Assembly: GCF_002220095.1 (NCBI RefSeq)
Contig: NZ_CP022372.1
Coordinates: forward strand, 3,134,501-3,198,500
Direction: 5' to 3'
DNA length: 64,000 bases
Source: Bosea sp. AS-1
GTDB lineage: Bacteria; Pseudomonadota; Alphaproteobacteria; Rhizobiales; Beijerinckiaceae
Below are positions 11,409-50,130 of the stretch, one piece after another. The notes under the pieces are model-generated. The model saw only the letters and a list, made by a program, of their open reading frames with translations, searched no databases and had not been told where the DNA came from. The stretch's first letter is position 1. Every line of letters starts with the position of its first letter. The position numbers were made by a program, and so were the translations under genes.

Positions 11409-11420
11409 AGGAGGATGACC

Positions 11421-13574: not shown

Positions 13575-13576
13575 GC

Positions 13577-23266: not shown

Positions 23267-24703
23267 TTAATTCGCGCCGCGGCCGGCCGCAGTAAAAGTC
23301 GGTACGGCTGCCGGCTCACAGCTTGCAGCACTATGAGCCAGCAGCCTTGCTCTCAGATCGGCAAAAATCACGGAATAGGCGGGATCACCAACCCGGTTCT
23401 CCTCCTCCAGAGGGTCGCGTGCCAGGTCGGCCAGAAAGGGATCTTCTGCCTCTGGCGAAATCGGAGCGCCGTTTTGCCGAACCGTCATGTCGAGACGATA
23501 ACGCGCGGTCCGAATGCAGGAACGACGCGGCCAGCCGCTGCCGTCCGTCCAGCGTCCGACGACCTGGTTGGGCAAAGCGTAACTGTCCGGTGTGCCGTAA
23601 CCGATGGTGCTGAAGACCGCTTCCGGCGGAGGATCGCGGAAGAGGTCTCGTCCCTGGAAGCTCGGCGCCGGTTCGATGCCTGCGAGGCCGCAGAGTGTCC
23701 TGGCGAGATCGAGGGATTCACACAGATCCGCGCGCGCCTGCGGCTGCAGATGCCCAGGCCAGGTGATCAGGCGCGGGATGCGATGAACCTCGGGGAAGAA
23801 GGTGTGCTTCTGCAACCGCCCGCGCTCGGCCAGCGAGACGCCATGATCAGCCTCGAGCACGATGATCGTGCGCTCGGCAAGACCGCTCGCTTCCAGCGCA
23901 TCGAGAATCGCCCCGACTTGGTCGTCGAGCCATTTGACCAGACCGTAATAATCGGAGCGCACGCGGGCGAGATCGTCGGGAGATAGCGCGGCCGCCTGCA
24001 TGACATCGACAAAACTCTGCTCGAAGGCACTTTGCGGCAATCCTCCGTCGATGCTGCGGGGCCAATCGAGATCGCGGTAGAGCGTATCGTAGGGCGCTGG
24101 CGGCATGACCGGACTGTGCGGCTGGAGATAGCTGACACGGGCGAGAAAGGGCTGCCCGGCTGCCGCCTCGCCGCGCAACCAAGTTGCAGCCGCTCGCGTG
24201 AGCTTGTTGCCCGGGAACTCGACAGGCCCCGGAAAGCTACCGCCAATCGCCGCTTTCAAGGTCGGGGTGAGGATCTGTCTACCATCGTCCTCGACGCCAT
24301 CGAAGAAGCCGCCGAGGTCGGCTCCGACATGGTCATCGCTTTGCCAGGGCCGTAGCGCCACCGGCAGATGGGTCTTGCCGAAATTCAGGGTGCGATAGCC
24401 GTTGCGAGCGAAATGCTCGGGAAAGGTGATCAAATCGCGGTCGTAGGAGTAGTTCTTCCAGGAGCCTTCGTTGCCATAGACCCCGGTGACTTCGGGTGGG
24501 TTCGCAGTCATCTCGCTCGTGCGCGACGGCACGCAGATCGGCGAATTGCAGAAGCAGTTGTCGAAGCGCACGCCGGCCGACGCGATCCGGTCGATATGGG
24601 GCGTTGCGATCGCCGGATGCGGCGTGCCGTAGCAGGATAAGGCATCTGTCCTGAACTCGTCGCCCATGAGCCAGAGAATGTTCGGTCGCCCGGTCATCGC
24701 CAC
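23267..24703 (-). CDS. Type I sulfatase (arylsulfatase/choline-sulfatase superfamily)
   Basis: A 478-residue enzyme that hydrolyses sulfate esters. The active-site signature C57-V-P-S-R61 (ICVPSRTSEMT) is the Cys-type form that must be converted to formylglycine. A GDEFRTDALSCYG start and a later LEADHGVSLAERG supply metal ligands. No signal peptide, so it acts in the cytoplasm. It overlaps the next sulfatase gene by 10 bases, forming a two-gene minus-strand operon divergent from the SDR gene. The matching formylglycine-generating enzyme is encoded at 37808-38767. The substrate is unknown. Confidence 0.9.
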   Translation of the reverse strand: MAMTGRPNILWLMGDEFRTDALSCYGTPHPAIATPHIDRIASAGVRFDNCFCNSPICVPSRTSEMTANPPEVTGVYGNEGSWKNYSYDRDLITFPEHFARNGYRTLNFGKTHLPVALRPWQSDDHVGADLGGFFDGVEDDGRQILTPTLKAAIGGSFPGPVEFPGNKLTRAAATWLRGEAAAGQPFLARVSYLQPHSPVMPPAPYDTLYRDLDWPRSIDGGLPQSAFEQSFVDVMQAAALSPDDLARVRSDYYGLVKWLDDQVGAILDALEASGLAERTIIVLEADHGVSLAERGRLQKHTFFPEVHRIPRLITWPGHLQPQARADLCESLDLARTLCGLAGIEPAPSFQGRDLFRDPPPEAVFSTIGYGTPDSYALPNQVVGRWTDGSGWPRRSCIRTARYRLDMTVRQNGAPISPEAEDPFLADLARDPLEEENRVGDPAYSVIFADLRARLLAHSAASCEPAAVPTFTAAGRGAN

Positions 24704-26133
24704 CCTCCCCTGGCCGAGGCATTGGCCGCCAGCAACGCTCGCAATCGGGCGGCGATCGCGGGATGGCGCGCGCTCAGGTCGGTTGCCTCCACCGGGTCGA
24801 CCTCCGGCTCGACCAGGCGCCAGTTCTCGTCCGGCTCGGCGGTGAAGGCGGCGGCTTCCATGAGCTTTCGCGGCAGGAGCGGATCGAAGCCGGCGACGTA
24901 TTTGAAGCGGCCGTCATAGATGGCTCTCCAACTGCCGAGGCCAGCATGGACGACATCGCGATGCCGGCGCGCGGGCTCTGCGAGCTGATGCACAAGGCTG
25001 CGGCTGTCGATGCCTGGCAGGGGCTGCGCCCCGGCGAGCTCGACGAAGGTAGCGTGCAGATCAAGCAAGGTGGTGGGGCCATCGACGGTTGCGCCCTGCG
25101 CCACGCCCGGCCCGGCGATCACCAGCGGCACATGCAGCGACGCCTGATGTGGGATGAATTTCTCCCAGTAGCCGCAATCCCCCAGCATCTCGCCATGGTC
25201 TGAGGTGAAGACGACGACGGTATCCTGCGCCTGGCCGAGCGCCTCGATCCGCGCAAGCAGGCGACCGAAGATCGCATCGATATTCGCGATCATTGCTGCA
25301 TAATTGCGCCGGATCGCGCGATGCGCTTCCGGCGCCATGTCGTCAGCGGGCGCGACCGGCGCGGGCGGGTCGAGCCTTGCCGCGCCGCTCGCCATCGAGG
25401 CGGTCACGTCCATTGGCTCGTGCGGGCCGGTGAGGTTGACCTGAAGGAACCAGGGCTTGCCACTGCAGGCGCCCTCCTCGATCAAGGACAATGCGCAGGC
25501 GCCAATCCAGTTGTCGCAATAGGCCTCGTCCGGCAGAGCTGTAGGCGTGATGTTGCGGTAATTCGCGCCGGCACCGGGAAAATCAAGCGCATCCGGTCCG
25601 AGCGCGGGCGATGTACGGCCTGCGAAATCCGACCAATGCGTACCGGCCAGGCCGCTCTGTTTCAAATGGACGAAATATGGCTCGGGATGACCGTCGCGAT
25701 GCGCGAAGATCGCGGCATGCTTGCCGGCACTGTCGAGGCCGCCGGTGAAGCCCAAGCGCTTCAGGCGGGACGGCCCCTGGAGTGCATGCTGGCCATCCTC
25801 CCCCCAGTCAGGCTCACCCTTGAGCATGTCGAGCTTGCCGCAGGTCATGACGTGATAGCCGGCATCCCGAAGCTGCCGATAGACATTCGGCGCATCAGGT
25901 GAGGCGCTGTCGCCATTGTTGCGCACGCCGGCGCGGTCATATTCGTAGCCCGACGCCAGGCAGGCTCGCGAAGGCCCACAGATGGGCGAGGGACAGACTG
26001 CCCGGAGGAAGCGGACGCCGCGCGCCACCACCCGATCAAGTTCCGGCGTGGGAACCCGCCCGGCATTCCGGGGGCCGGCCCAGTCGCCGCGCAGCTGGTC
26101 CGGCATGAACAGCAGGATGTTAGGTCGGCGCAT
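24694..26133 (-). CDS. Type I sulfatase, second copy
   Basis: A 479-residue sulfatase whose signature is C52-G-P-S-R56 (ICGPSRACLASG). It begins RRPNILLFMPDQLRGDW and has the downstream FTSDHGEMLGDCGYWEK motif with the expected metal and substrate residues. No signal peptide, so it is cytoplasmic. It differs clearly from its neighbour, so the pair may act on different positions of one substrate. First gene of the sulfatase operon; its promoter region carries a TTTGATCAAA palindrome shared with the divergent SDR gene. Confidence 0.92.
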   Translation of the reverse strand: MRRPNILLFMPDQLRGDWAGPRNAGRVPTPELDRVVARGVRFLRAVCPSPICGPSRACLASGYEYDRAGVRNNGDSASPDAPNVYRQLRDAGYHVMTCGKLDMLKGEPDWGEDGQHALQGPSRLKRLGFTGGLDSAGKHAAIFAHRDGHPEPYFVHLKQSGLAGTHWSDFAGRTSPALGPDALDFPGAGANYRNITPTALPDEAYCDNWIGACALSLIEEGACSGKPWFLQVNLTGPHEPMDVTASMASGAARLDPPAPVAPADDMAPEAHRAIRRNYAAMIANIDAIFGRLLARIEALGQAQDTVVVFTSDHGEMLGDCGYWEKFIPHQASLHVPLVIAGPGVAQGATVDGPTTLLDLHATFVELAGAQPLPGIDSRSLVHQLAEPARRHRDVVHAGLGSWRAIYDGRFKYVAGFDPLLPRKLMEAAAFTAEPDENWRLVEPEVDPVEATDLSARHPAIAARLRALLAANASARGGWR

Positions 26134-26149
26134 CCAGCCTCTCCGCGTA

Positions 26150-26161
26150 ATTTGATCAAAT
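26150..26161. promoter_or_regulatory. GntR operator candidate in the sulfatase-SDR divergent promoter
   Basis: ATTTGATCAAAT is a perfect 12-bp palindrome, identical to the site at 28725-28736 ahead of the large operon. It lies 17 bases upstream of the sulfatase start. Confidence 0.65.
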
Positions 26162-26223
26162 AAGGCGATAACCTGGTCTTATCTCTTGACACAAAGCTGC
26201 GCAATATGGCGTCTCTTTCTAAT

Positions 26224-26235
26224 TGGTGATCAAAT
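26224..26235. promoter_or_regulatory. Partial second operator before the SDR gene
   Basis: TGGTGATCAAAT keeps the right half and core of ATTTGATCAAAT but differs at the first three bases. It is 12 bases ahead of the SDR start codon, where bound repressor would block initiation. Confidence 0.4.
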
Positions 26236-26247
26236 CAGGCGTTTGCC

Positions 26248-27081
26248 ATGTCGTCCCCGAAACAGATCGCAGCCCGCAACGCCGCCGCGATCGCCGAACG
26301 CTTTACGATGAAGGGGCGCCGCGCCCTCGTGACGGGCGGAAGCGTCAGCCTCGGCCGGGAGATCGCGATTGCCTTCGCCGATGCGGGTGCCGATGTCGCC
26401 ATCCATTTCTCACGCACGGCCGACACGGCCTTCGGCCTACCGCACGCATCCGAAACGACCGTGTCCGACATCCAGGAGCGCGGCGGACGCGGCCTCGCGA
26501 TCGAAGCGGATTTCTCCCGGCCGGGCGAGGCGCGGCGTTGCGTGCAGGCGGCCATTGCCGGGCTGGGTGGGATCGACGTGCTCGTCGTCTGCGCCTCCGT
26601 GCAGAAGCGCACCGCCTTCACCGCACTACCCACCGACGAGATCGAGTGGCAGCTCAGGATCAACTACCTGGCCACGATCGAACTCCTCCAGGAAGCCCTG
26701 CCGCCCATGAAAGCGCGCCGTTGGGGGCGCGTCGTGACGATCGGCTCGATCAACCAGACCAGGCCCGAGCCGGACCTTGCGGTCTATGCGTCGCTGAAGA
26801 GCGCCCAGCACAACCTTGCCATCAACCTGGCTGCCGACTACGCCGCCCACGGCGTGACCGTGAACAACCTGTCGCCGGGCCTGATCGTTACCGAGCGCAA
26901 TCGCTGGCGCCGGCAGGACGCCTGGCAATGGCAGCGCATTCAGCAGACTTCGGCACCGATGCAGAGGGCGGGCGACGTCAACGAGATCGCCGGAGCGGCC
27001 CTGCTTCTATGCTCCGAGGCGGGTAGCTTCATCACCGGAGCCGATCTGCAGGCGACCGGCGGCCGCCATCTCGGCTGGTAG
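26248..27081 (+). CDS. SDR-family NAD(P)-dependent dehydrogenase
   Basis: A 277-residue classical short-chain dehydrogenase. The cofactor loop is TGGSVSLG near residue 30, the catalytic serine lies in TIGSINQ, and Y-A-S-L-K supplies tyrosine and lysine. The C-terminal GSFITGADLQATGGRHLGW is typical. It probably oxidises a sugar or polyol hydroxyl; with the lactonase nearby, the product would be a lactone. It is divergent from the sulfatase operon and shares its operators. No longer N-terminal extension or membrane segment. Confidence 0.9.
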   Translation: MSSPKQIAARNAAAIAERFTMKGRRALVTGGSVSLGREIAIAFADAGADVAIHFSRTADTAFGLPHASETTVSDIQERGGRGLAIEADFSRPGEARRCVQAAIAGLGGIDVLVVCASVQKRTAFTALPTDEIEWQLRINYLATIELLQEALPPMKARRWGRVVTIGSINQTRPEPDLAVYASLKSAQHNLAINLAADYAAHGVTVNNLSPGLIVTERNRWRRQDAWQWQRIQQTSAPMQRAGDVNEIAGAALLLCSEAGSFITGADLQATGGRHLGW

Positions 27082-27106
27082 CTTCGGCTCTCATGCAGAT
27101 CTAGGG

Positions 27107-27985
27107 CTAGCCCACAAAAAGCGGCTCCGCCAAGCCTGCCACGCCGACATCGAGCGCCAGCAGCGCGCCGGCCAGCGGCTCTTCCGCCAGAGCTTCGGTG
27201 CTCAGTTTCTGACGGGCCGTCGTGACGTAGAGGGCCCGCAGGCCGGCTCCGCCGAAAGCGCAGGAGGTCGGCTGACTGACCGGCAGCTCGACCAAACGGT
27301 CAAGACGACCATCGGGGGCGAAACGCGCAAGGCAGCCACCTTGGTAGCGCGCGTTCCAGAGATAGCCCTCGGCGTCGACCGTCGCCCCATCCGGCCGTCC
27401 GGGCGCTGCCTCTGCAGCCGCGAAGAGACGCCATGGCCCGATCTCGCCCGTCACCGGGTCGTAGTCGGCCTGCTCGATCACGCCGCGCCGCGTATCGGTA
27501 AAGTAGAGGATGCGCCCGTCCGGCGCGAAAGCGATAGCGTTGGCGACGGTCACCTCCGACCTAACCTGTGTAACGGCGCCCTTCGCATCGATGCGATAGA
27601 GGCCGCCTGTGCTGCGCAAGCCGAAATCCCACATACTACCGCAGAATATCCGGCCGGCCGGATCGCATTTGGCGTCGTTCAGCCGATTCTCCGGCGGGCC
27701 TGTCTCGACCGAAGCCAGGAGCGTCAGCTTCGCCGTCTCCGGATCGAAGCCATAGAGCCCGTGCCTGACGGCGACTACGACACCACCGCCGCGCCGCGCT
27801 ACGACCGCGCCGATCAAGTCCGGCATCGGCCAGCTTCGGACTGCCCCAGTCGCCGGGTCGAGACGATGCAGGGCGGGCGCACGCAGATCCACCCAATAGA
27901 GTAGGCCGGCGTCGGCGACCCAGCAGGGCGACTCGCCCAATTCGTCGACCGTGGTGGCCGCAATGGCGATGGGCGCCGCGCTCAT
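27107..27985 (-). CDS. SMP-30/gluconolactonase family sugar lactonase
   Basis: A 292-residue six-bladed beta-propeller. The metal ligands of the family are visible: the glutamate in DELGESPCW, asparagines in RLNDAKCDPAGR and ANAIAFAPDG, and the aspartate in RPDGATVDAEG. These enzymes open aldonolactones with a divalent metal. Its start overlaps the end of the gntR gene (ATGA), so it is made from the regulator's own transcript. Together with the SDR it would make an aldonate-type acid from a sugar; sulfogluconolactonases belong to the same family. Confidence 0.9.
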   Translation of the reverse strand: MSAAPIAIAATTVDELGESPCWVADAGLLYWVDLRAPALHRLDPATGAVRSWPMPDLIGAVVARRGGGVVVAVRHGLYGFDPETAKLTLLASVETGPPENRLNDAKCDPAGRIFCGSMWDFGLRSTGGLYRIDAKGAVTQVRSEVTVANAIAFAPDGRILYFTDTRRGVIEQADYDPVTGEIGPWRLFAAAEAAPGRPDGATVDAEGYLWNARYQGGCLARFAPDGRLDRLVELPVSQPTSCAFGGAGLRALYVTTARQKLSTEALAEEPLAGALLALDVGVAGLAEPLFVG

Positions 27986-28644
27986 CGCTCCAGCTCCGCA
28001 GCGGAGGCCGGGTCTTCCGCGATCCGGGCCAGCAGATCGTGCTTGGCCTTTTCGATATGCGCGCCCATCAGCATGGCGGCCGAGGTAGCATCGCCGCGCT
28101 CGATCGCCCGCATCAGATGCCGGTGATCGTCAATCACGCCGTGGAAGCGCCCGTCATCATAACCGTAGCGCTGCCAGAGCGCGGCAACGAGCAGCCAATG
28201 CCGGTCGACCAGCGACATGGCGCCGGGATTGCCGGCTGCATCGTTGATGACGCCATGAAAGCGATGGTTGGCGGCCGGCACCGCGGTGAACCGCCCATTC
28301 CGGACGTGATCCTCGAGCTCTTCCTGAGCGGCCTGCAGTGCCGCGATATGGCTGGCGTCTCGCCGCTCGGAGGCGCGGCGCGCCAGCATCGTCTCGACGG
28401 CGCTGCGGATGTCGAACAGATCCTCGACGAAACCGAGATCGATCGGGCGCACGCGGGCCCCGCGGTTCGGCTCGATGATCACCAGCCCCTCGCCGCTCAG
28501 CTGGCGCAAGGTCTCGCGGATCGGCATGTGGCTGACGCCGTACCGGCTCGCCAGCTCGTCGATCCGCAGCCGGGAGCCGAAGGGAAGCGCACCTGAGACG
28601 ATGTCGTCACGCAAGAGCTGCTGGACGTCGGGAACTCTCGCCAT
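27982..28644 (-). CDS. GntR-family regulator (FCD/FadR-type)
   Basis: A 220-residue protein with an N-terminal winged HTH (ELASRYGVSHMPIRETLRQLSGEGLV) and an all-helical FCD ligand domain (DLFDIRSAVETMLARR to MGAHIEKAKHDLL) with histidines suited to bind a metal and an acid ligand. It is divergent from the large operon and upstream of the lactonase. Palindromes TTTGATCAAA/TTTGACCAAA next to its own promoter and to the sulfatase-SDR promoter are its probable operators. The ligand is likely a sugar acid or sulfo-acid intermediate. Confidence 0.9.
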   Translation of the reverse strand: MARVPDVQQLLRDDIVSGALPFGSRLRIDELASRYGVSHMPIRETLRQLSGEGLVIIEPNRGARVRPIDLGFVEDLFDIRSAVETMLARRASERRDASHIAALQAAQEELEDHVRNGRFTAVPAANHRFHGVINDAAGNPGAMSLVDRHWLLVAALWQRYGYDDGRFHGVIDDHRHLMRAIERGDATSAAMLMGAHIEKAKHDLLARIAEDPASAAELER

Positions 28645-28660
28645 AGCCTACCTGAACCCG

Positions 28661-28674
28661 GATTTGACCAAATC
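28661..28674. promoter_or_regulatory. GntR operator candidate near the gntR start
   Basis: GATTTGACCAAATC is an inverted repeat (GATTTG and CAAATC arms) 17 bases upstream of the gntR start codon, placed for autoregulation. Confidence 0.55.
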
Positions 28675-28724
28675 TCGCTCGCACAGGTGGATAATCTTGT
28701 CAATTTCGGACTTGCCAAGGAATG

Positions 28725-28736
28725 ATTTGATCAAAT
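28725..28736. promoter_or_regulatory. GntR operator candidate ahead of the large operon
   Basis: ATTTGATCAAAT is identical to the site at 26150-26161 and lies about 55 bases before the start of the SuyB-like gene. Confidence 0.65.
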
Positions 28737-28790
28737 AATCTGCTCCGCGCAGGTCGACCCGCTCGGTCCGCTGCCTTGTCGGAGGCTGAC

Positions 28791-29975
28791 GTGAGTGATG
28801 TCGCCGGATCCTTTCAGATGAGACCGTTCCAGGGCTATCTCCGCGCCGACGGGCGCGTCGGCGTGCGCAACCATATGCTGATCCTTGGAATCAACGGTCT
28901 CGCCTTGCGGTCAAGCGAGCGCATCGCACGCAACCTGCCAGGCTCGCTTCTGGTCGCGACCTCGGCCGGCCGCGGTCAGGTCGAGCCGGATCTCGGCCTG
29001 CATCTTGATCAACTCGTCGGCCTCGGCCGCAATCCCAATGTCGGGGCCGTCCTGGTCGTCGGCGTCGATCAGGCGACGTCAGACGACGTTGCCGCCCGGA
29101 TCGCGCTCTCCGGCAAACCGGTCGCCAGCGTAAGCTTCGCCGAGTGCGGCGAAGACGCGCTGGCCATCAGCGATCTCGGTCTGCGCCGTGCCACCGAACT
29201 CAGCCGCGCCGCCTCGCGGGCCCGCCGGACGCGGGTCGAGCCCACCGCGCTCGTGGTTGCGGTTGAATGCGGTCATTCCGATGCCACCTCCGGCCTCGCC
29301 AGCAATCCCATCGTCGGAGCGGCGGTGGATAGGCTCGTTGCCGCCGGCGCCTGCGTCATCGTCGGCGAAACCGTGGAATGGCTCGGCGCCGAGCACCTGC
29401 TCGCCCGCCGCGCGGCCGATGCCGATGTGGCGGCCCGCATCCATGCGGCCGTAGCAGGGCGCGAAGCGATCGCAATCGCGTCCGGGCGCAGCCTGACCGG
29501 GAACAACCCGGGCGAAGAGAACATCAAGGGCGGCCTGTCCACCATCGAGGAAAAATCGCTCGGTGCCATCGTCAAGTCCGGTACAGGCACGATCGCCGGC
29601 ATGCTCGGCGTAGCGGAGGCACCGCCCGGGCCCGGCCTGTACCTGATGGACGGCCCCTCCTTCTCACCGGATTCGATGACGGGGTTCGCGGCGGCCGGCG
29701 CCACAATCATGTTGTTCACGACCGGGCCGGGCAACAGCTTCGCCAGCGCGATCGCACCGACGCTCAAGATCTCGGCCCACCCCGAGACAGTGACACGCTT
29801 GCCAGCGCAGATCGATTTCGACGCAAGCCCGATCCTGGCCGGGGCGGAGACACTGGCTGAAGGAAGCGAACGCCTCGTCGAGGCCGTCCTCGACGTCGCG
29901 GACGGCACACTGACGCTCGGCGAGATCGTCGGCGAGGGGCTGGAAGTGCCCACTCGCATCCGAGGTTCGCTGTGA
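28791..29975 (+). CDS. UxaA-family lyase large subunit (SuyB-like or altronate dehydratase-like)
   Basis: GTG 28791 is chosen for the GGAGG 5-6 bases upstream, giving 394 residues; a TTG five codons earlier is the alternative. It covers only the C-terminal catalytic part of UxaA enzymes: DGRVGVRNHMLIL, NPNVGAVLVVG, NPGEENIKGGLSTIEEKSLG and FTTGPGNSFAS. The missing N-terminal SAF domain is encoded separately at 34543-34830. This two-subunit split is how (R)-sulfolactate sulfo-lyase SuyAB is built, which makes pyruvate and sulfite; split sugar-acid dehydratases exist as well. First gene of an eleven-gene operon; the following permease starts inside its stop. Confidence 0.8.
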   Translation: MSDVAGSFQMRPFQGYLRADGRVGVRNHMLILGINGLALRSSERIARNLPGSLLVATSAGRGQVEPDLGLHLDQLVGLGRNPNVGAVLVVGVDQATSDDVAARIALSGKPVASVSFAECGEDALAISDLGLRRATELSRAASRARRTRVEPTALVVAVECGHSDATSGLASNPIVGAAVDRLVAAGACVIVGETVEWLGAEHLLARRAADADVAARIHAAVAGREAIAIASGRSLTGNNPGEENIKGGLSTIEEKSLGAIVKSGTGTIAGMLGVAEAPPGPGLYLMDGPSFSPDSMTGFAAAGATIMLFTTGPGNSFASAIAPTLKISAHPETVTRLPAQIDFDASPILAGAETLAEGSERLVEAVLDVADGTLTLGEIVGEGLEVPTRIRGSL

Positions 29976-30766
29976 ACCGGGCCGCAGCGCCCCGGGTGTT
30001 CCTCCGCTGGCTCGGCGGGGCGTTGATCTATGTCCGCACCATGGCCCTCTTCCTGCTGGCCTGGTCCCTCGCGGCCGAGGCCGTGCCGAACAAGCTGTTG
30101 CTGCCCTCTCCGCTTGCCGTGGCGCAGGCGCTGCAGGAAAGCTGGCAGGATGGGGAGCTGACCGCCAATGCCGGCATCAGCCTACTACGGCTCACCATCA
30201 GCGTCGCCGCGGCGACGCTCCTCGCCATTCCACTTGGCCTCGCCATGGGCCGCAGTCGGGTGGCCGGCGATCTGCTGGAATGGACCGTGGAATTGTTGCG
30301 GCCGATCGCCGGCATCGCCTGGATTCCGCTGGCGCTGTTCATCTTCGGGATCGGGCAACGTCTGCCGATCTTCATCATGTTCTACACGGCGTTCTTCCCG
30401 CTCCTGCTCGGGACGGCCGCCGGCGCACAAACCGTCGACCGGCGCCTGATCGCCGCAGCTCGTACCATGGGGCTCTCGCAAGCGACGATCATACGGCAAG
30501 TCGTCGTGCCAGCCGCTCTGCCGTCCGTACTGGTCTCACTGCGGCTGGCGGTAGCGGCGTCCTGGACGGCCGTGGTCGCTGCGGAACTCGTGGGCGCACC
30601 GAGCGGGCTCGGCTACGCCATCGAATACTACCGCAGCATGCTTTCAACGCCCTCCGTGATGGCCTTCATCGCCGTCATCGGCTTTCTGGGCTTTCTGACC
30701 GATCGCGCCTTGCGCTGGCTTGCGGATGCGCTCGCCCCCTGGGCTCAGGCGGAGGGGGCCCGATGA
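29972..30766 (+). CDS. ABC transporter permease (SsuC/TauC type)
   Basis: A 264-residue inner-membrane protein with about six hydrophobic segments. It has the BPD_transp_1 loop near AARTMGLSQATIIRQVVVPAALP, the EAA motif that docks to the ATPase. The GTG start overlaps the upstream stop (GTGA). Similarity in style is to nitrate/sulfonate/taurine importers. A second, different permease follows immediately, so the channel is probably a heterodimer. Confidence 0.9.
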   Translation: MNRAAAPRVFLRWLGGALIYVRTMALFLLAWSLAAEAVPNKLLLPSPLAVAQALQESWQDGELTANAGISLLRLTISVAAATLLAIPLGLAMGRSRVAGDLLEWTVELLRPIAGIAWIPLALFIFGIGQRLPIFIMFYTAFFPLLLGTAAGAQTVDRRLIAAARTMGLSQATIIRQVVVPAALPSVLVSLRLAVAASWTAVVAAELVGAPSGLGYAIEYYRSMLSTPSVMAFIAVIGFLGFLTDRALRWLADALAPWAQAEGAR

Positions 30767-31511
30767 AGCGGATCGCCCTGAAGCTCGTCCTGCCGCTGCT
30801 GATCCTGCTCGTCTGGGAGTTGGCCGCGAGTGGATCGACCAGGGCACCGCGCCCGAGCACGGTGATCCAGACAGCGATCAAGATGATCGCGAGCGGCGAC
30901 CTACCGACAGGGCTGGCGACGAGCCTGCTGCGCGTCTTCCTCGGCTTCGCGACAGCCTCCTGCCTTGCAATTCCCTTGGGAATCGTCATGGGCAGCGTCG
31001 CCGCCGTCGAGCGCAATCTCGATCCCCTGGTCGAGAGCTTCCGCCCGATCGCGGCGATTGCGCTCCTGCCGCTGATCATCCTGTGGCTCGGAACCGGCAC
31101 GCAGGCGGCGGTCGCAATCGTCGCCTATGCCGCCTTCTTCCCGATCCTGATCAACACAATTGCAGGGGTGAAGCGCATCGAACCCAATCTGATGCGGGCC
31201 GCCTATACGATGGGCGTGACGACGCTGACGCGCATGCGGGTCGTGTTGCTGCCGGCTGCTCTGCCCGCCATCCTCGTCGGCATGCGCATCGGGCTCGGCG
31301 TCGCCTGGACGGCGATCATCGCCGCAGAACTCGCGGTCGGCGCTAAAGCCGGTGGCCAGGGCGGCATCGGCCAAATGATGTTCGTGTTCTACGCCTACAG
31401 CGTCGAGTTCAACGGCATCGTCGTCTGCATGGTTGCGGTGGGGTTGGTCGCCCTGCTGCTCGACCAGACGCTGCGTTTCGCACTCGCCCGCGCCGTGCCC
31501 TGGAGCAATCC

Positions 31512-31515
<4 letters not shown>
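30763..31515 (+). CDS. ABC transporter permease, second subunit
   Basis: A 250-residue permease from ATG 30763, which overlaps the end of the first (ATGA). Its EAA loop reads AAYTMGVTTLTRMRVVLLPAALP. The N-terminus has one anchor segment (LKLVLPLLILLVWELAASG) followed by a typical STVIQTAIKMI periplasmic stretch. Partner of the preceding permease, with the ATPase next. Confidence 0.9.
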
Positions 31516-32321
<806 letters not shown>

Positions 32322-32342
32322 ACAACAAGAGGGAGGAACGCC

Positions 32343-33581: not shown

Positions 33582-33649
33582 GCGGCAGGCCACCGGGCGC
33601 CGGCATTCCGGCAGGCGCCCGTCCCGATCCGGAACGAAGGACAATCATC

Positions 33650-34546
33650 ATGACAACGGTCGGCTTCATCGGCCTCGGCACCATGGGGGCGCCGATGGCC
33701 CGTAATCTTCTCAAGGCGGGCCACGCGCTGACGGTCTACGACCTCAATGCGAGCGCATTGGCGAAGCTGGTCGAGGCCGGCGCCACGGCCGCCGCCTCGC
33801 CCGCCGCGGTGGCGAGCGCTTCCGAGGTCGTTGTTACGATGCTTCCCGATGCGCCCGACGTCGAAACGGCGGTGCTCGGCCCGGACGGCATCGCCCAGGG
33901 TCTAAAGCGCGGCAGCCTCTATATCGACATGAGCACGATCGATCCGCAGACGACGCAAAAGATCGGCGCCGCCCTGATGGAGATGGGCGTCGACATGCTC
34001 GACAGCCCGGTCGGCAAGACCGTCGAACACGCCGTCGCTGGCACCTCGACCCTGATGATCGGTGGTGATGCGGCCGTGCTGGAGCGCGCCCGGCCGGTGC
34101 TCTCGGCGATGGGACAGGACCTGATCTATTGCGGCGGCCTCGGCATGGGCCAGGCGATGAAGCTGACCAACAACCTGCTCGCCAGCGTGCTGATCACCGC
34201 AAGCTCGGAAGCGCTCGTCTGCGGAGCCAAGGCCGGCCTCAGCCTCGAGACGATGCTGAACGTGCTGAAGACGACCATGGCCTGGAACCAGCAGCTCGCC
34301 GTCGCCATGCACAACCGCGCGCTGAAGGGCGATTTCGAGCCCGGTTTCATGGTCAAGCTGGCGCATAAGGATTGCCGCCTGGCCTTGGCGATGAACAGCT
34401 CGCTCGGCATCGAGACCCCGGTCGGAGCCGCGACGCTCGCGGCGCTGCAGGAGGCTATCGAGGCCGGTCTCGCCAACAAGGATGTTGGCGCCGTGCTCAA
34501 GCTGCGCGAGGACCCCGCCGGCGTGCAGGTGAGGCTGCCGGCATGA
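33650..34546 (+). CDS. Beta-hydroxyacid dehydrogenase, YihU-like (sulfolactaldehyde reductase-like)
   Basis: ATG 33650 gives 298 residues. It has an N-terminal Rossmann motif FIGLGTMGAPMARNL, MSTIDP, and the catalytic lysine in GMGQAMKLTNNLL (K171). Where most family members read D-x-PVSGG, this one reads DSPVGKT (119-124). E. coli 3-sulfolactaldehyde reductase YihU has PVGRT there, with the arginine contacting the sulfonate as I recall. Lysine could play the same role. That makes a sulfonated or sulfated C3 aldehyde/acid a plausible substrate. 2-hydroxy-3-oxopropionate or 3-hydroxyisobutyrate are alternatives. Its stop overlaps the SuyA-like start. Confidence 0.8.
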   Translation: MTTVGFIGLGTMGAPMARNLLKAGHALTVYDLNASALAKLVEAGATAAASPAAVASASEVVVTMLPDAPDVETAVLGPDGIAQGLKRGSLYIDMSTIDPQTTQKIGAALMEMGVDMLDSPVGKTVEHAVAGTSTLMIGGDAAVLERARPVLSAMGQDLIYCGGLGMGQAMKLTNNLLASVLITASSEALVCGAKAGLSLETMLNVLKTTMAWNQQLAVAMHNRALKGDFEPGFMVKLAHKDCRLALAMNSSLGIETPVGAATLAALQEAIEAGLANKDVGAVLKLREDPAGVQVRLPA

Positions 34547-34830
34547 CGGAAACTTCCGCCATCGTCCTGCATCCGGCCGACGATGTCGCCGTGCTGGTTG
34601 GCGCGGTGGCGGCCGGCGACGACGTTGCGGTACGCGGCGCGCGAGAAGGGCTGCGGCTCGTCGCCGGAGCTACGCTCGCCAGCGGCCACAAGCTCGCGCT
34701 GCACTCTCTCGAAGCCGGCTGCGACGTCCGCAAATACGGCGAGGTCATCGGCAGGCTGACGGCACCGGTCGCGGCCGGCGACCATGTCCATGTCCATAAT
34801 CTCAAGAGCCTGCGCGGCCACATCGGTTGA
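34543..34830 (+). CDS. UxaA-family small subunit with SAF domain (SuyA-like)
   Basis: A 95-residue SAF-domain protein with the conserved string ASGHKLALHSLEAG, then VRKYGEVIGRLTAPVAAGDHVHVHNL, exactly the N-terminal domain of altronate dehydratases. ATG 34543 overlaps the preceding stop. It should pair with the large subunit at 28791-29975 although six genes lie between them, a separation not usual for suyAB. Its histidines help bind the catalytic iron. Confidence 0.85.
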   Translation: MTETSAIVLHPADDVAVLVGAVAAGDDVAVRGAREGLRLVAGATLASGHKLALHSLEAGCDVRKYGEVIGRLTAPVAAGDHVHVHNLKSLRGHIG

Positions 34831-34875
34831 GATCGGTCGGTCGCGCGCAAAGCCAACAACAGGAAGGGAGAGACA

Positions 34876-35850
34876 ATGCTCAGGACCATCCTTGCCGCGA
34901 CCTCGGGCCTCCTGCTCGCCGCGATCGCGACTGCCGCTTCAGCCCAGAGCTGGCCTGACCGGCAGATCCGCCTGATCATTCCCTTCCCGCCCGGCGGGCA
35001 GCAGGAGGTCGCCTCCCGCATCCTGGTCGAAAAGCTCTCGGCCGAGCTCGGCCAGCCGATCATCATCGACTCGCGCCCCGGCGCCGACGGTAATGTCGGC
35101 ACGGAAGCCGTCGCGAAGAGCGCGCCCGACGGCAATACCTGGCTCGGTTCAAGCGTGCCCTTCACGACGCAGGTCGCGCTGCATCCAAAGAGCCTGCGCT
35201 ACAGCCCGACCAAGGATTTCGCACCGGTCGCCGGTTTTGGCACCACCACCTTCATGTTCACCGTACCGGCGGAGCTGCCGGTCAAGGACCTCAAGGAGTT
35301 CATCGCCTATATCAAGGCGCAGAAGGGCAAAGCCTCCTATGCCGGCTCCGGCCGCGGCTCGGTTGTCCATCTAGCGACCGAGAAATTCAAGCAGAGCGCC
35401 GGGCTCGATATGGAGATGATCCCCTATGCCGGACAGCCGCCCGCGATCGCGGATCTGCTGGCGGCACGCGTCCAGTTCATGGCGCTGGGCTCGGTCTTCG
35501 CGGCCCCGCTGGTCAAGGCCGGCAAGCTGAAGGCGCTGGCGGTGATGGACACTAAACGCAATGCCGAGCTGCCCGACGTACCGACCATCGTCGAGGCCGG
35601 CTATCCCGATCTGGCGCTGAAGAGCTTCTTCGGCATCCACGTTCCGAAAGGGACGCCCGAGGCGGTGATCCAACGCATCAACGCCGCAGTCAACAAGGCG
35701 ATCACGATGCCCGATGTCGTCGAGCGCTTCGCCAAGAGCAACGTCGATCCGGCTGAGCCGAACACGCCGCAGCAATACGGCGCGCTGATCGAACAGCAGA
35801 TCGCGCTCTGGGCCGGCATCATCAAGGCCGCCGGCATCGAGACCGACTGA
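34876..35850 (+). CDS. tctC: Tripartite tricarboxylate transporter substrate-binding protein (TctC/Bug family)
   Basis: A 324-residue periplasmic binding protein with a Sec signal peptide (LLLAAIATAASA-QS) and the Bug-family landmarks WPDRQIRLIIPFPPGG, IIIDSRPGADGNVGTEAVAKS and DGNTWLG. It delivers a carboxylate to the TctAB membrane complex encoded next. GGAAGGGAG precedes the start. It gives the operon a second uptake system besides the ABC importer. Confidence 0.93.
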   Translation: MLRTILAATSGLLLAAIATAASAQSWPDRQIRLIIPFPPGGQQEVASRILVEKLSAELGQPIIIDSRPGADGNVGTEAVAKSAPDGNTWLGSSVPFTTQVALHPKSLRYSPTKDFAPVAGFGTTTFMFTVPAELPVKDLKEFIAYIKAQKGKASYAGSGRGSVVHLATEKFKQSAGLDMEMIPYAGQPPAIADLLAARVQFMALGSVFAAPLVKAGKLKALAVMDTKRNAELPDVPTIVEAGYPDLALKSFFGIHVPKGTPEAVIQRINAAVNKAITMPDVVERFAKSNVDPAEPNTPQQYGALIEQQIALWAGIIKAAGIETD

Positions 35851-35866
35851 CCGGGTGGAGAGCGTC

Positions 35867-36316
35867 ATGCAGGCCGATCTCAAGGATATTGCGGCAGGCT
35901 TGCTGCTGGTTGCTGCGGCGCTCTTCTTCGGCCTGATCGGCTTCGTGCAACTACCGCTGGGGACGAGCTTCCGCATGGGGCCGGGTTACTTCCCTGCGCT
36001 GCTGTCAGGGCTGCTGGCCGTGATGGGGCTCATCATCGCCGGACGCGCGATCGGCCGCAGCTCCGAGATCTCGACAATCAGGGTTCCGTGGCGCGGCGTC
36101 CTGCTCACGAGTGCCGCCACGGTCGCCTTCGCGCTGCTGGTGCCGGCTTATGGGCTGGTGCCAGCGCTCGTCACCGCGATCCTGCTCTCGGCATTTGCCA
36201 GCCGGCGCATGACCTGGCCGCTGGCGGTCGGCCTAGCCACCGGGCTGACGCTGTTTTCAGCGTTGCTGTTCCGCTACGGGCTCGGCGTGCCGGTGCCGCT
36301 GCTGGGAGCCTCATGA
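35867..36316 (+). CDS. tctB: Tripartite tricarboxylate transporter small membrane protein TctB
   Basis: A 149-residue protein with four predicted hydrophobic segments and the conserved RMGPGYFPALLSGLLAVMG motif of TctB. ATG 35867 has GGGTGGAG upstream. It overlaps tctA by 4 bases. Confidence 0.9.
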   Translation: MQADLKDIAAGLLLVAAALFFGLIGFVQLPLGTSFRMGPGYFPALLSGLLAVMGLIIAGRAIGRSSEISTIRVPWRGVLLTSAATVAFALLVPAYGLVPALVTAILLSAFASRRMTWPLAVGLATGLTLFSALLFRYGLGVPVPLLGAS

Positions 36317-37821
36317 TGGATCTCATCGACCATCTCGCGCTCGGCTTGCAGGTGGCGATTTCGCCGGGAAACCTGCTGTTCTGCTTCATCGGGGCGCTGC
36401 TCGGCACGCTCGTCGGCGTCCTGCCCGGCATCGGGCCGGCGGCGACAGTCGCGATGCTCCTGCCGATCACCTTCACGATGTCGCCCGAGACCTCGCTGAT
36501 CATGCTGGCAGGCATCTACTACGGCGCACAATATGGCGGTTCGACCACTGCGATTCTGATCAATCTGCCGGGGGAGGCCAGCTCGGCGGTGACCGCGATC
36601 GATGGCTACCAGATGGCTCGGCAGGGGCGCGCCGGAGCAGCATTGGGCATCGCCGCCATCGGCTCCTTCATCGCGGGCAGCTTCGCGACACTGGTGATCG
36701 CCTGGTTCGCCGAGCCGCTGACCGCGGTAGCGCTCAGATTCGGGCCGGCCGAATATTTCTCGCTGATCCTGCTCGGTCTCGTCGCCTCGACCGCACTGGC
36801 GCATGGCTCGGTACTCAAAGCGCTGGCCATGATCGTGTTCGGCATGCTGCTCGGCCTCGTTGGCACCGATGTGAATTCGGGCCAGCTGCGCTACACCTTC
36901 GGCGTCGGCGAGCTGGCCGACGGGCTCGGCATCGTCGCGATCGCGGTCGGCGTCTTCGGCATCGCCGAGATCTTCCGGAACCTCGAGGACGAGCAGGAGC
37001 GCGAGATCGGCGTGAAGGCGGTCTCGGGGTTGATGCCGTCGCGCACCGATTTCAGAGCCTCCGCAGCCCCGATCGCGCGCGGAACGCTGATCGGCACCGT
37101 GCTCGGCGTGCTGCCGGGCGGCGGCGCGCTGCTCGCCTCCTTCGCCTCCTATGCCGTCGAGAAGAAAGTCGCGAAGGATCCGTCCCGCTTCGGCAAGGGT
37201 GCGATCGAGGGCGTCGCGGGGCCCGAAAGCGCCAACAATGCCGGTGCCCAGACCTCCTTCATCCCAATGCTGACGCTCGGCCTGCCAGCCAATGCGGTGA
37301 TGGCCCTGATGGTCGGAGCGATGACCATCCAGGGTATCGCGCCGGGTCCGAGCGTCATCACCGACAAGCCGGAGCTGTTCTGGGGGCTGATCGCCTCGAT
37401 GTGGATCGGCAATCTGATGCTGGTGCTGCTTAACCTGCCGCTAATCGGCATCTGGGTTCGGCTGTTGAGCGTACCCTATTACATCCTGTTTCCCGGGATC
37501 ATCGCCTTCTCGGCGATCGGCGTCTATTCGGTCGCCTCGAACGTGTTCGACCTCTACACACTCGCCGCGTTCGGCCTCCTAGGCTATCTGTTGGTCAAGC
37601 TCGGCTTCGAGCTGACCCCGCTCCTGCTTGGTTTCGTGCTGGGTCCGATGATGGAAACCTATCTGCGCCGAGCGATGGTGCTGTCGCGCGGCGACCCGAG
37701 CTATCTGATCACGCAGCCGTTGAGCGCGGCCCTGCTGATCGCGACCGCCAGCGTTCTCTGCCTGTTGCTGCTACCCTCGGTCACACGCAAACGCAGCGAG
37801 GTCTTCGTTGAGGAAGACTAA
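36313..37821 (+). CDS. tctA: Tripartite tricarboxylate transporter large membrane protein TctA
   Basis: A 502-residue, about twelve-segment permease. It has the two glycine-rich TctA motifs, GTLVGVLPGIGPAATVAMLLP near residue 30 and GTVLGVLPGGGALLASFASY near 260, and YYGAQYGGSTTAILINLPGE. ATG 36313 overlaps the tctB stop. With TctB and TctC it imports an organic acid using a sodium or proton gradient. Confidence 0.94.
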   Translation: MMDLIDHLALGLQVAISPGNLLFCFIGALLGTLVGVLPGIGPAATVAMLLPITFTMSPETSLIMLAGIYYGAQYGGSTTAILINLPGEASSAVTAIDGYQMARQGRAGAALGIAAIGSFIAGSFATLVIAWFAEPLTAVALRFGPAEYFSLILLGLVASTALAHGSVLKALAMIVFGMLLGLVGTDVNSGQLRYTFGVGELADGLGIVAIAVGVFGIAEIFRNLEDEQEREIGVKAVSGLMPSRTDFRASAAPIARGTLIGTVLGVLPGGGALLASFASYAVEKKVAKDPSRFGKGAIEGVAGPESANNAGAQTSFIPMLTLGLPANAVMALMVGAMTIQGIAPGPSVITDKPELFWGLIASMWIGNLMLVLLNLPLIGIWVRLLSVPYYILFPGIIAFSAIGVYSVASNVFDLYTLAAFGLLGYLLVKLGFELTPLLLGFVLGPMMETYLRRAMVLSRGDPSYLITQPLSAALLIATASVLCLLLLPSVTRKRSEVFVEED

Positions 37822-38767
37822 TTCCGTTTCAAGCTGCGGCTGCGGTGGTTTGGCAAGCCGCGGCCCTGCGGAGGCCACGGAGTCGGCGCCGATCGCGGCA
37901 GGTTCCGGAGACGTCTCGACCATCCTCGACATCCCGGGCGGACGAGCCGAGATCGGAACCGATGCGCCGATCTTTGACAGCGACGGCGAAGGGCCGCGGC
38001 GTTTCGTGCCGCTCCCGCCTTTCCGCCTCGACGAGACGGCCGTCACCAATGAACGTTTCCAGCGCTTCGTCGCAGCCAGCGGCCATGTCTCTGAGGCAGA
38101 ACGCTATGGCTGGTCGTTCGTTTTCGCGGGCCATCTGCCCAAAGAAAGGAAAGGCAGTGCGCGCGTGACCGGCGCGGAATGGTGGCGCAAGGTCGAAGGT
38201 GCCTGCTGGCATGCTCCGGAAGGTCCGGGCTCGGACCTCGCCGCGCGGACGAACCACCCCGTCGTCCATGTCTCGCGCCGTGACGCCCTCGCCTTTGCTG
38301 CCTGGGCCGGTGGCCGGCTGCCTTCCGAAGTCGAATGGGAACATGCGGCGCGAGGCGGCCTGACCGGCGCGACGTTTCCCTGGGGCAATCGGGAGCCCGA
38401 CGACGTCGGCTTCCTGCCCTGCAACATCTGGCAAGGCCGCTTTCCACAGCAGGATACCGGCGCCGACGGTTATCGCGGAACAGCGCCGGCGCGGGATTTC
38501 GCGCCGAACGGCTACGGCCTGTACCAGATGTGCGGCAATGTCTGGGAATGGACTGCAGATGCGTTCCGGGTCCGCTCGCTCAAGCGGGCGGCACAGGCGC
38601 TGAACAGGGCTGCTACCCGCGAAGGGCGATATCTGCTCAAGGGCGGCTCGTTCCTCTGCCACAAATCTTATTGCTTCCGATATCGTATCGCCGCTCGCAT
38701 CGGCAACACACCAGACTCAAGCACGAGCCATACGGGGTTTCGCGTTGCCTACAACGTCGATTCGTAA
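37808..38767 (+). CDS. Formylglycine-generating enzyme (sulfatase-modifying factor)
   Basis: A 319-residue enzyme beginning at TTG 37808 inside the end of tctA. It has the FGE-sulfatase fold: GGRLPSEVEWEHAARGG, NVWEWTADAF, and the active cysteines C284 and C289 in FLCHKSYCFRYRIAAR, which bind copper and oxidise the sulfatase cysteine to formylglycine. Both sulfatases at 23267-26133 carry the required C-x-P-S-R. Last gene of the operon. The N-terminal CGCGG is unusual and may be read-through of a poorly defined start; an internal start is possible. Confidence 0.93.
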   Translation: MRKTNSVSSCGCGGLASRGPAEATESAPIAAGSGDVSTILDIPGGRAEIGTDAPIFDSDGEGPRRFVPLPPFRLDETAVTNERFQRFVAASGHVSEAERYGWSFVFAGHLPKERKGSARVTGAEWWRKVEGACWHAPEGPGSDLAARTNHPVVHVSRRDALAFAAWAGGRLPSEVEWEHAARGGLTGATFPWGNREPDDVGFLPCNIWQGRFPQQDTGADGYRGTAPARDFAPNGYGLYQMCGNVWEWTADAFRVRSLKRAAQALNRAATREGRYLLKGGSFLCHKSYCFRYRIAARIGNTPDSSTSHTGFRVAYNVDS

Positions 38768-39982: not shown

Positions 39983-39984
39983 AT

Positions 39985-39996
39985 ATCAGCCCTGAT
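39985..39996. promoter_or_regulatory. Possible LacI operator
   Basis: ATCAGCCCTGAT has symmetrical arms ATCAG and CTGAT around two bases, 3 bases upstream of the lacI-type gene start. Flanking ATATAT and GTATAT strings extend a weak symmetry. Confidence 0.3.
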
Positions 39997-40116
39997 TTCT
40001 GCAGGTATATCGTTGCACAAACCACCAAGCTATGAAAAGCTCGGTTCAGATGGGCACATTCCGCGCAGAAAGATGCCCCTCGGGAAACGCGAACAAGGCC
40101 TCCAAGGAGAGCGACA

Positions 40117-41406: not shown

Positions 41407-41408
41407 TC

Positions 41409-46553: not shown

Positions 46554-46614
46554 GGAGGCCACCCTCGGTACTTGGGACGATTGATGCAGACAGAGCTATT
46601 ACCAGCGAGAGCGC

Positions 46615-47403: not shown

Positions 47404-47437
47404 GGTTCGGTTCCTCCCAAAATCGTCGGTCGAGAGT

Positions 47438-47644: not shown

Positions 47645-47846
47645 AGCGGATTCTCCGGCGGCGCGGCTGTAGTGCGTCAGCTGGACTAGACCGTGCGCCG
47701 CATGGCCGGTCCAAGACAAAAAGGCTTCTCCTGCCAAGCATTTTCATGCCAGGCGGAACGATGTTGCCGGCTGCCGGGTCAATGCTGGTTCTGGGCGGGT
47801 CGAGCCGGCCGGGCGGTGAGGTCGTTTCCGGCTTTGCGACATCGAC

Positions 47847-49046: not shown

Positions 49047-49055
49047 CGCAGATAC

Positions 49056-50015: not shown

Positions 50016-50061
50016 GTGCGCCTCAACCCGCCTCTCTCGACAAGGGCTTGAAACCGGAATA

Positions 50062-50083: not shown

Positions 50084-50130
50084 TAATTGGCGATTGGCTA
50101 GCCCCAACCGCTCGACTGGAGGGATCGTCC

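What the first reader, a model, noticed from the sequence alone, without database searches (positions are those of the whole stretch)
23267..38767. Sulfated/sulfonated compound degradation locus under one GntR regulator
Two Cys-type sulfatases, their formylglycine-generating enzyme, an SDR, an SMP-30 lactonase, a split UxaA/SuyAB-like lyase, a YihU-like dehydrogenase, a sulfonate-type ABC importer and TctABC lie together. Sulfatases handle C-O-S esters while SuyAB and YihU relatives handle C-S sulfonates, so the combination may define a route in which both bonds are cleaved, or a route for a sulfated sugar through an oxidised, lactone-forming path. No sulfoquinovosidase, KDSG aldolase or EDD-type dehydratase is present, so it is not a known sulfoglycolytic pathway.
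Basis: partly seen in the sequence, partly recalled or inferred. Interest (0 to 1): 0.8.

Follow-up and report, generated by a model that had tools for sequence, protein, structure and literature searches.

The report
Sulfated-sugar oxidation locus, one GntR regulon
A soil bacterium related to Bosea carries a self-contained gene set that probably takes up a sulfate-bearing sugar, oxidises it to a sugar acid, removes the sulfate and breaks the acid with a poorly known enzyme related to, but distinct from, the enzyme that splits sulfolactate.

Summary
Confirmed: every gene named is at the stated coordinates. The set is closed: the genome's only two PF00884 sulfatases, the only one of its three FGE-like proteins in which I found the CxxxxC pair and all three genomic copies of ATTTGAYCAAAT lie here. 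The copies sit in the sulfatase/SDR and GntR/lyase divergent promoters and recur in relatives, so 'one GntR regulator' is supported. Cleavage of both C-O-S and C-S bonds is not. A SuyAB-SlcC-ComC module lies elsewhere in the genome. The window's lyase is in its own clade (100/99) beside SuyB; sulfatases lie near in 20 of 40 loci versus 0 of 26 for SuyB, SlcC and ComC in 0 of 40. Like SuyB it lacks three of four iron cysteines of UxaA/GarD dehydratases. Its YihU-like partner has an invariant PVGKT loop (19 of 19). Best reading: oxidative (dehydrogenase, lactonase, lyase) breakdown of an O-sulfated sugar or sugar acid. Substrate, order of desulfation and aldolase are unknown; cassettes without local sulfatases (Mesorhizobium, Microvirga) weaken the claim that sulfate is essential.

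The parts
23267..24703 (-). sulfatase B (P0002), type I, SPICVPSR; no signal peptide seen by eye
   Evidence: PF00884 135 bits; motif; 66% relative in Amaricoccus
24694..26133 (-). sulfatase A (P0001), type I, SPICGPSR; overlaps sulfatase B; below the choline-sulfatase cut-off (150 vs 433 bits); no signal peptide seen by eye
   Evidence: PF00884 126 bits; matches at E<=1e-60 in 2 of 397 genomes of the order, one of them the window's own
26150..26161 (.). operator-like ATTTGATCAAAT in the sulfatase A / SDR divergent promoter
   Evidence: exact match, one of only 3 sites in the genome, same place in L003, L004 and before the SDR in L005-L008
26248..27081 (+). SDR, probable aldose 1-dehydrogenase
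   Evidence: PF13561/PF00106; best PDB 4imr, deposited as an oxoacyl-ACP reductase
27107..27985 (-). SMP-30 lactonase
   Evidence: PF08450 284 bits; PDB 7plb SMP-30 and regucalcins
27982..28644 (-). GntR regulator, FCD class
   Evidence: PF07729, PF00392
28662..28673 (.). operator-like ATTTGACCAAAT in the GntR / lyase divergent promoter
28725..28736 (.). operator-like ATTTGATCAAAT in the GntR / lyase divergent promoter
28776..29975 (+). large (catalytic) subunit of the UxaA/GarD/SuyB-type lyase (start codon uncertain)
   Evidence: PF20629, PF04295; tree; cysteines
29972..30766 (+). NitT/TauT-type ABC permease 1
   Evidence: PF00528; NCBIfam SaoP/TauC/SsuC below cut-off
30763..31515 (+). NitT/TauT-type ABC permease 2
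   Evidence: PF00528 within the 30280-31515 frame
31512..32321 (+). ABC ATPase, SaoA/NtrCD/TauB-like, below their cut-offs
   Evidence: PF00005
32343..33581 (+). ABC substrate-binding protein, NMT1/SsuA-like, 412 aa, Tat-like N-terminus (by eye)
   Evidence: PF09084; SsuA family 75 vs cut-off 163.5; best PDB SsuA 2x26, weak
33650..34546 (+). beta-hydroxyacid dehydrogenase, YihU-like, PVGKT loop
   Evidence: best PDB 6sm7; NCBIfam sulfolactaldehyde 3-reductase 271 vs cut-off 348; loop
34543..34830 (+). SAF-domain small subunit of the lyase (UxaA N-domain / SuyA-like)
   Evidence: PF08666
34876..35850 (+). TctC
   Evidence: PF03401
35855..36316 (+). TctB (start uncertain)
   Evidence: PF07331
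36313..37821 (+). TctA
   Evidence: PF01970
37808..38767 (+). formylglycine-generating enzyme (start uncertain), LCHKSYC pair
   Evidence: PF03781 242 bits; motif

Best explanation
A single GntR (FCD) regulon for oxidative, non-phosphorylative breakdown of an O-sulfated sugar and/or its sugar acid. The sulfonate-type ABC importer and TctABC bring the anionic compound in (inferred). The FGE activates two type I sulfatases, cytoplasmic by the look of their N-termini, that remove the sulfate ester(s) (families and motifs shown, activity inferred). The SDR oxidises C1 and the SMP-30 enzyme opens the lactone (families shown, substrate inferred). The heteromeric lyase (large subunit + SAF) then beta-eliminates the aldonate to a 2-keto-3-deoxy acid (inferred from the superfamily). 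An aldolase not in the locus (RraA-like in three relatives) yields pyruvate plus an aldehyde (inferred). The YihU-like enzyme, with PVGKT in place of the usual loop PVSGG, converts a small anion-bearing aldehyde, which I think may still be sulfated (glyceraldehyde-3-sulfate type; inferred). The order of desulfation is not shown.
For: Closed gene set and unique operator-like sites. In Mesorhizobium the same site lies before the SDR and in the GntR/lyase promoter, tying the SDR/sulfatase promoter to the lyase promoter. In the lyase's clade, sulfatases lie within about 10 kb in 20 of 40 loci (39 distinct: L005 and L076 are the same contig) against 0 of 26 SuyB loci; all 20 sulfatase-bearing loci also have TctA, against 3 of the 20 without. 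SMP-30 18 of 40, SDR 13, AKR 9, HIBADH 19, ABC binding protein 16, FGE 5. RraA-like aldolase near the lyase in L021, L024, L027. AKR of the L-galactose-dehydrogenase kind in L012. PVGKT in 19 of 19 cassette dehydrogenases aligned, 18 distinct loci. Other sulfatase loci of the clade carry MR_MLE acid-dehydratase-type proteins and, in five, a nickel-pincer isomerase: sugar-acid chemistry.
Against: The same SDR/SMP-30/lyase/ABC/HIBADH cassette exists without local sulfatase, FGE or TctABC in Mesorhizobium and Microvirga (L005-L011), though the five such genomes tested hold 4-8 sulfatase matches elsewhere. Only 5 of the 20 sulfatase loci show an FGE within range at the threshold used. No aldolase in the locus. 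Tree-aware tests are not significant: sulfatase with TctA 5 pairs to 0, 2 undecided, p 0.0625; ABC with HIBADH p 0.25; SMP-30 with sugar dehydrogenase p 1. No activity was tested, and no substrate can be read from the sulfatase sequences.
Confidence: 0.55

Rival explanations
1. The sulfatases act first and everything after is an ordinary unsulfated oxidative sugar pathway; the sulfatases with FGE and TctABC are an add-on to a general sugar cassette.
For: Cassette without local sulfatases in Mesorhizobium/Microvirga; most sulfatases of the other loci are only about 23-31% identical to the window's while the lyase is kept; sulfatase presence changes 7 times on the lyase tree.
Against: The HIBADH loop PVGKT, the weakly SsuA-like binding protein and the SuyB-neighbouring lyase all resemble proteins that handle sulfonates; none of this would be needed for an unsulfated sugar.
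Confidence: 0.27
2. One reading: a C-S (sulfonate) route with SuyAB-like sulfo-lyase and YihU-like enzyme, sulfatases cutting C-O-S as well.
For: Heteromeric lyase beside SuyB in the tree with the same loss of three iron cysteines; closest PDB relatives of the dehydrogenase and binding protein are YihU and SsuA.
Against: A SuyAB-SlcC-ComC module is elsewhere in the genome; SlcC (at 50% identity or more) 0 of 40 and ComC (45% or more) 0 of 40 beside the window clade, against 18 and 23 of 26 for SuyB (one window-clade locus, L081, has a 36% SlcC-like match). TauE and SorA are 0 of 40 but also only 2 and 1 of 26, so they discriminate little. Residues fixed in SuyB (K164, Q244, S294 in window numbering) are E, N, P here.
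Confidence: 0.1
3. Uronate/aldarate route: uronate dehydrogenase, lactonase, GarD-like dehydratase and tartronate-semialdehyde reductase acting on sulfated uronates.
For: Same order of reactions; TctABC could carry dicarboxylates; MR_MLE proteins in sister loci score, all below cut-off, to talarate/galactarate, arabinonate and gluconate/galactonate dehydratases; sulfatase B aligns with iduronate-2-sulfatase among many others.
Against: The HIBADH lacks PVSGG, the loop seen in the other family members printed; the SDR is of the PF00106/PF13561 kind, whereas uronate dehydrogenases are extended SDRs (recalled); three of four dehydratase cysteines missing; in Amaricoccus an L-galactose-dehydrogenase-like AKR stands in for the SDR.
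Confidence: 0.08

Closest known systems
Non-phosphorylative oxidative sugar pathways with a UxaA/GarD-type dehydratase (D-arabinose in Herbaspirillum huttiense, PMC6336799, passages and section 8 read)
   Same: aldose dehydrogenase, lactonase, acid lyase of the UxaA superfamily; the paper assigns by gene context a heteromeric (split) L-fuconate dehydratase in Paraburkholderia mimosarum
   Different: adds two sulfatases, FGE, sulfonate-type ABC and TctABC; the lyase lacks three of the four cysteines that the paper says are conserved in these superfamily enzymes except sulfolactate sulfo-lyase
SuyAB 3-sulfolactate sulfo-lyase
   Same: heteromeric (SAF + large subunit), neighbouring clade, same cysteine loss
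   Different: own clade (100/99); no SlcC or ComC nearby at the thresholds used; residues fixed in SuyB not kept; genome has a separate SuyAB
Sulfo-Entner-Doudoroff pathway (composition recalled)
   Same: dehydrogenase, lactonase, lyase and an enzyme resembling a sulfolactaldehyde enzyme
   Different: no sulfoquinovosidase, IlvD/EDD dehydratase, KDSG aldolase or aldehyde dehydrogenase in the locus; sulfatases and FGE point to O-sulfate
YihU sulfolactaldehyde reductase (6sm7)
   Same: best PDB match over the full length, PVG(R/K)T loop, LAHKD
   Different: Lys for Arg in the loop; below the NCBIfam cut-off (271 vs 348 bits)
Sulfatase/TctABC/UxaA loci with a nickel-pincer isomerase (L023, L025, L026 in Rhodobacterales-type organisms, L085, L086 in the window's order; found here, no name known to me)
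   Same: same lyase clade, sulfatases, TctABC, sometimes FGE
   Different: no SDR, SMP-30 or ABC cassette; MR_MLE proteins, nickel-pincer isomerase, LarC in four of five, and in several a putative glycosidase

Membership tests
type I sulfatase | PF00884 over cut-off | tested here: met
   135 and 126 bits vs 25
type I sulfatase | Cys-type CxPSR motif | tested here: met
type I sulfatase | hydrolysis of a sulfate ester | not testable with these tools
FGE | PF03781 and the catalytic cysteine pair (pattern recalled from human FGE) | tested here: met
   242 bits, LCHKSYC
SuyAB | SAF subunit plus GD_AH subunit | tested here: met
SuyAB | large subunit inside the SuyB clade | tested here: not met
   separate clades, 100/99 and 100/100; SuyB identified by gene context, not by assay
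SuyAB | SlcC/ComC nearby | tested here: not met
   0 of 40 for each at the thresholds used
SuyAB | loss of the iron cysteines | tested here: met
   L-R-V-C in the window, L/I-R-I-C in SuyB
UxaA/GarD dehydratase | Pfam GD_AH domains | tested here: met
   249 and 72 bits
UxaA/GarD dehydratase | four conserved iron cysteines (PMC6336799) | tested here: not met
   one of four kept; the spacing of the four columns in L115 (36, 75, 110, 178) equals that of Cys134, 173, 208, 276 in the paper
sulfolactaldehyde reductase YihU | NCBIfam NF012005 cut-off 348 bits | tested here: not met
   270.8 bits
sulfolactaldehyde reductase YihU | PVGRT loop with Arg123 (role in sulfonate binding recalled) | tested here: inconclusive
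   PVGKT, 19 of 19 cassette proteins; control L095 has PVSGG
sulfo-ED pathway | EDD dehydratase, KDSG aldolase, sulfoquinovosidase | tested here: not met
   none among the locus genes; the genome's single GH31 scores lower to PRK10426 than to MalA, all below cut-off; EDD and KDSG aldolase not sought in the rest of the genome
non-phosphorylative oxidative pathway | aldose DH, lactonase, acid lyase, then aldolase or hydrolase | tested here: inconclusive
   first three families in the locus; aldolase absent, RraA-like in L021/L024/L027, 8 RraA-like genes elsewhere in the genome

The most novel reading that the evidence does not exclude
The lyase clade is a further activity of the UxaA/GarD/SuyB superfamily: having lost the iron site of the dehydratases, it eliminates a better leaving group than hydroxide, namely sulfate, from a 3-O-sulfated aldonate (a sulfate-releasing lyase), so that desulfation and 2-keto-3-deoxy acid formation are one step. 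The hydrolytic sulfatases beside it would deal with sulfate at other positions, and cassettes without sulfatases would need none.
Probability: 0.13. Interest if true: 0.85.

Novelty: new variant of a known kind. Interest (0 to 1): 0.58.

Why it matters
Intracellular routes for sulfated monosaccharides after polymer breakdown are little described, as far as I know. This locus is small and has its own regulator with three operator-like sites found nowhere else in the genome, so it gives a clean reporter for finding the natural inducer. It also points to a lyase clade with sulfatases nearby in 20 of 40 loci whose reaction is unknown and whose missing cysteines make a definite, testable prediction.

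Tried and rejected
SuyAB identity: rejected by clade, context and residues. My own first idea, a plain sugar-acid dehydratase, was weakened by the loss of three iron cysteines. But the same loss in a Haloterrigena UxaA (ATTC, L031), which lies with an arabinofuranosidase and a DHDPS-family aldolase and no annotated sulfatase or sulfonate gene, shows that the loss alone does not prove sulfur chemistry. Choline sulfatase: both sulfatases far below the cut-off. Known sulfoglycolysis: not found in the locus. A link with the LacI/sugar-ABC genes from 38924: no LacI match in L003/L004 and no site with up to two mismatches there, so treated as a separate neighbour. With two mismatches one search lists 9 matches in the window against a shuffle mean of 2.5 (1 of 100 shuffles reached 9); two weaker ones lie inside the sulfatase B gene (23932, 24424) and were not used. 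The joining of the window and SuyB clades is only 90/80, or 91/70 with two long rows left out, and depends on rooting at the dehydratases; grouping the window clade with L031_10022 and L034 instead gives p-AU 0.025. Raw identity does not single out SuyB: the closest plasmid-borne matches to the window's lyase are haloarchaeal (42%), with a context-named SuyB at 37-39% and the E. albertii protein at 37%. Literature: ten searches gave no paper describing such a locus in the library held; only listings were seen, except passages and section 8 of PMC6336799 and two passages of PMC11659671.

Rows dropped or redundant: G032 (3.6 kb contig) was not fetched; L005 and L076 are the same contig; several loci are cut by contig ends (for example L010, L018-L021, L024, L027, L078, L080), so their misses mean little; a sulfatase fragment at the edge of L084 fell under the length limit. 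The 26 SuyB-type loci are 24 picks from the 36-40% matches plus two plasmid loci; one search scored at most four candidates a genome. One search used identity floors (SlcC 50, ComC 45, SDR 45, HIBADH, ABC and AKR 40, SMP-30 and FGE 35%). One search tested 7 genomes, of which the five without local sulfatases are those of L005, L007, L008, L009, L011.


Full report
What is there. The window lies in a 5.84 Mb genome. The nearest named loci are Bosea sp. Root483D1 and Rhizobiales bacterium 2SD, so I call the host Bosea-like, by inference. Between 23267 and 38767 are, in order: sulfatase B and sulfatase A (-, overlapping), SDR (+), SMP-30 lactonase and GntR (-, overlapping), and then a run of eleven + strand genes, mostly overlapping or closely spaced: lyase large subunit, two NitT/TauT-type permeases, ATPase, SsuA-like binding protein, YihU-like dehydrogenase, SAF subunit, TctC, TctB, TctA and FGE. 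The SAF half of the split lyase is at 34543-34830, with five genes between it and its partner.

More than chance. PF00884 finds two places in the genome, both here. PF03781 finds three; only the window's protein shows the FGE pair LCHKSYC (L040 lacks it, and my pattern found no such motif in L041). The intergenic stretches between GntR and lyase and between sulfatase A and SDR share the palindrome ATTTGATCAAAT (26150, 28725) and the variant ATTTGACCAAAT (28662). Exact ATTTGAYCAAAT has three sites in the whole genome, these three; the reversed control pattern has none. Of 16 relatives scanned, 10 have at least one site with at most one mismatch; L003-L008 have all three, including the one before the SDR; L012, L013, L015, L019, L020 and L024 have none. 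So the sulfatases, SDR, lactonase and the eleven-gene run very probably form one GntR regulon, and by this exact motif the regulon is nothing but this locus. Binding itself is not shown.

Where else it occurs. A lyase search of the named species genomes, which reaches close relatives only, gave 25 loci. L003 and L004 carry the entire set at 77-95% identity. Mesorhizobium (L005-L008, L011) and Microvirga (L009, L010) carry SMP-30, GntR, lyase, ABC, dehydrogenase, SAF and SDR, but no sulfatase, FGE or TctABC match nearby. Amaricoccus L012 has both sulfatases, TctC/TctA and an AKR of the L-galactose dehydrogenase kind, no SDR match. In the host's order the lyase clade (identity 41% or more) is in 14 of 397 genomes, and sulfatase A relatives at E<=1e-60 in 2 of 397, one being the window's genome: a rare, patchy locus.

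What the lyase is not. G000 has three PF20629 proteins: one with all four cysteines (L094), one in a SuyB-SlcC-ComC setting (L075: 84%, 64% and 59% identical to the Methylobacterium plasmid locus L033, which also has TauE/SafE, a molybdopterin oxidoreductase taken as SorA, and a putative sulfate exporter), and the window's. SuyB is named here by gene context. In a tree of 73 proteins the window's clade (40 rows, 100/99) and SuyB (26 rows, 100/100) are separate and lie together (90/80) apart from the dehydratases (91/70 without two long rows). Within about 10 kb, sulfatases occur in 20 of 40 against 0 of 26 (Fisher p 4e-6), SlcC in 0 of 40 against 18 of 26, ComC in 0 of 40 against 23 of 26. These p-values ignore relatedness. 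On the tree the sulfatase trait changes 7 times, and in 7 independent pairs TctA goes with it in 5, against in 0, undecided in 2 (p 0.0625).

What the lyase may be. PMC6336799 (section 8 read) states that four cysteines are conserved in UxaA/GarD superfamily enzymes except sulfolactate sulfo-lyase, and takes them as an iron site. On my alignment the Paracoccus PD1222 protein L115 (the D-idonate dehydratase of the paper, by inference from its neighbours), the altronate-type proteins (L116, L094), GarD (L117) and the E. albertii protein (L034) have all four; SuyB and the window clade keep only the last. The spacing of the four columns in L115 equals that in the paper. Otherwise the window clade keeps dehydratase-like residues (N244, P294, P298, T315) where SuyB differs, and has fixed residues of its own (E164, R229, Q345). 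So it is neither a standard dehydratase nor SuyB. A haloarchaeal protein in a sugar setting has also lost the three cysteines (L031), a warning against over-reading.

The other enzymes. The dehydrogenase matches YihU best (222 bits, next 197). All 19 cassette proteins aligned (18 distinct) have PVGKT where YihU has PVGRT and the other two family members printed, and the control L095, have PVSGG. That YihU's Arg123 holds the sulfonate is recalled, not looked up. The binding protein's best solved relatives are SsuA, weakly. RraA-like aldolases lie near the lyase in L021, L024 and L027; the window's genome has eight RraA-like genes, none in the locus.

Mechanism and limits. Taken together I favour uptake of an O-sulfated sugar or sugar acid, oxidation to the aldonate, elimination to a 2-keto-3-deoxy acid, cleavage by an aldolase encoded elsewhere, and handling of an anionic C3 aldehyde by the YihU-like enzyme, with sulfate removed by the two FGE-activated sulfatases. 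Shown: families, motifs, operator-like sites, synteny, clade. Inferred: every substrate, the order of desulfation, which importer carries what. The cassettes without local sulfatases mean that sulfate may be optional. The bold alternative, that the lyase expels sulfate itself, is not excluded.

Novelty. No paper describing such a locus turned up in ten full-text searches of the held library, which lacks most subscription journals.

Noticed in passing
L025:15343-16746 and relatives in L014, L015, L016, L026, L079, L082, L085: A protein family of about 460 aa (two members tested, no Pfam match; L025 no NCBIfam match) in sulfatase/lyase loci; confident model (pLDDT 94) resembles TIM-barrel glycosidase-type folds (PgaB, GH42, beta-amylase; TM about 0.5), so perhaps a new glycosidase for sulfated glycosides.
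   Followed up: partly
L023:5814-7133, 11110-13726; also L025, L026, L085: Nickel-pincer isomerase group 22 with LarC, LarE and LarB in sulfatase/TctABC/lyase loci: a possible link between the nickel-pincer cofactor and sulfated sugar acids.
   Followed up: partly
L075 (same genome, C3:3752501-3772000): SuyAB-SlcC-ComC-type sulfolactate module elsewhere in the window's genome.
   Followed up: yes
11415-16551, with 8128-10242 before it: Mu-transposase-C, TniB and TniQ proteins after an FtsH-like AAA/M41 protease; an IS3 transposase lies at 19517-20377. The sulfatase locus may sit near a mobile region.
   Followed up: no
38924-42362: LacI regulator, SBP_bac_8-type binding protein and sugar-type ABC permease right after the FGE; no LacI match in the two closest relatives and no shared operator.
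   Followed up: partly
44595-54918: Flavin hydroxylase, Gfo/Idh oxidoreductase, Rieske protein with LigXa-type C-terminus, aldehyde dehydrogenase and TPP enzyme: looks like an aromatic degradation cluster.
   Followed up: no
L031:10022-12644: Haloterrigena plasmid locus with two UxaA-type large subunits around one SAF subunit; on my alignment one has lost three iron cysteines, the other the fourth.
   Followed up: no
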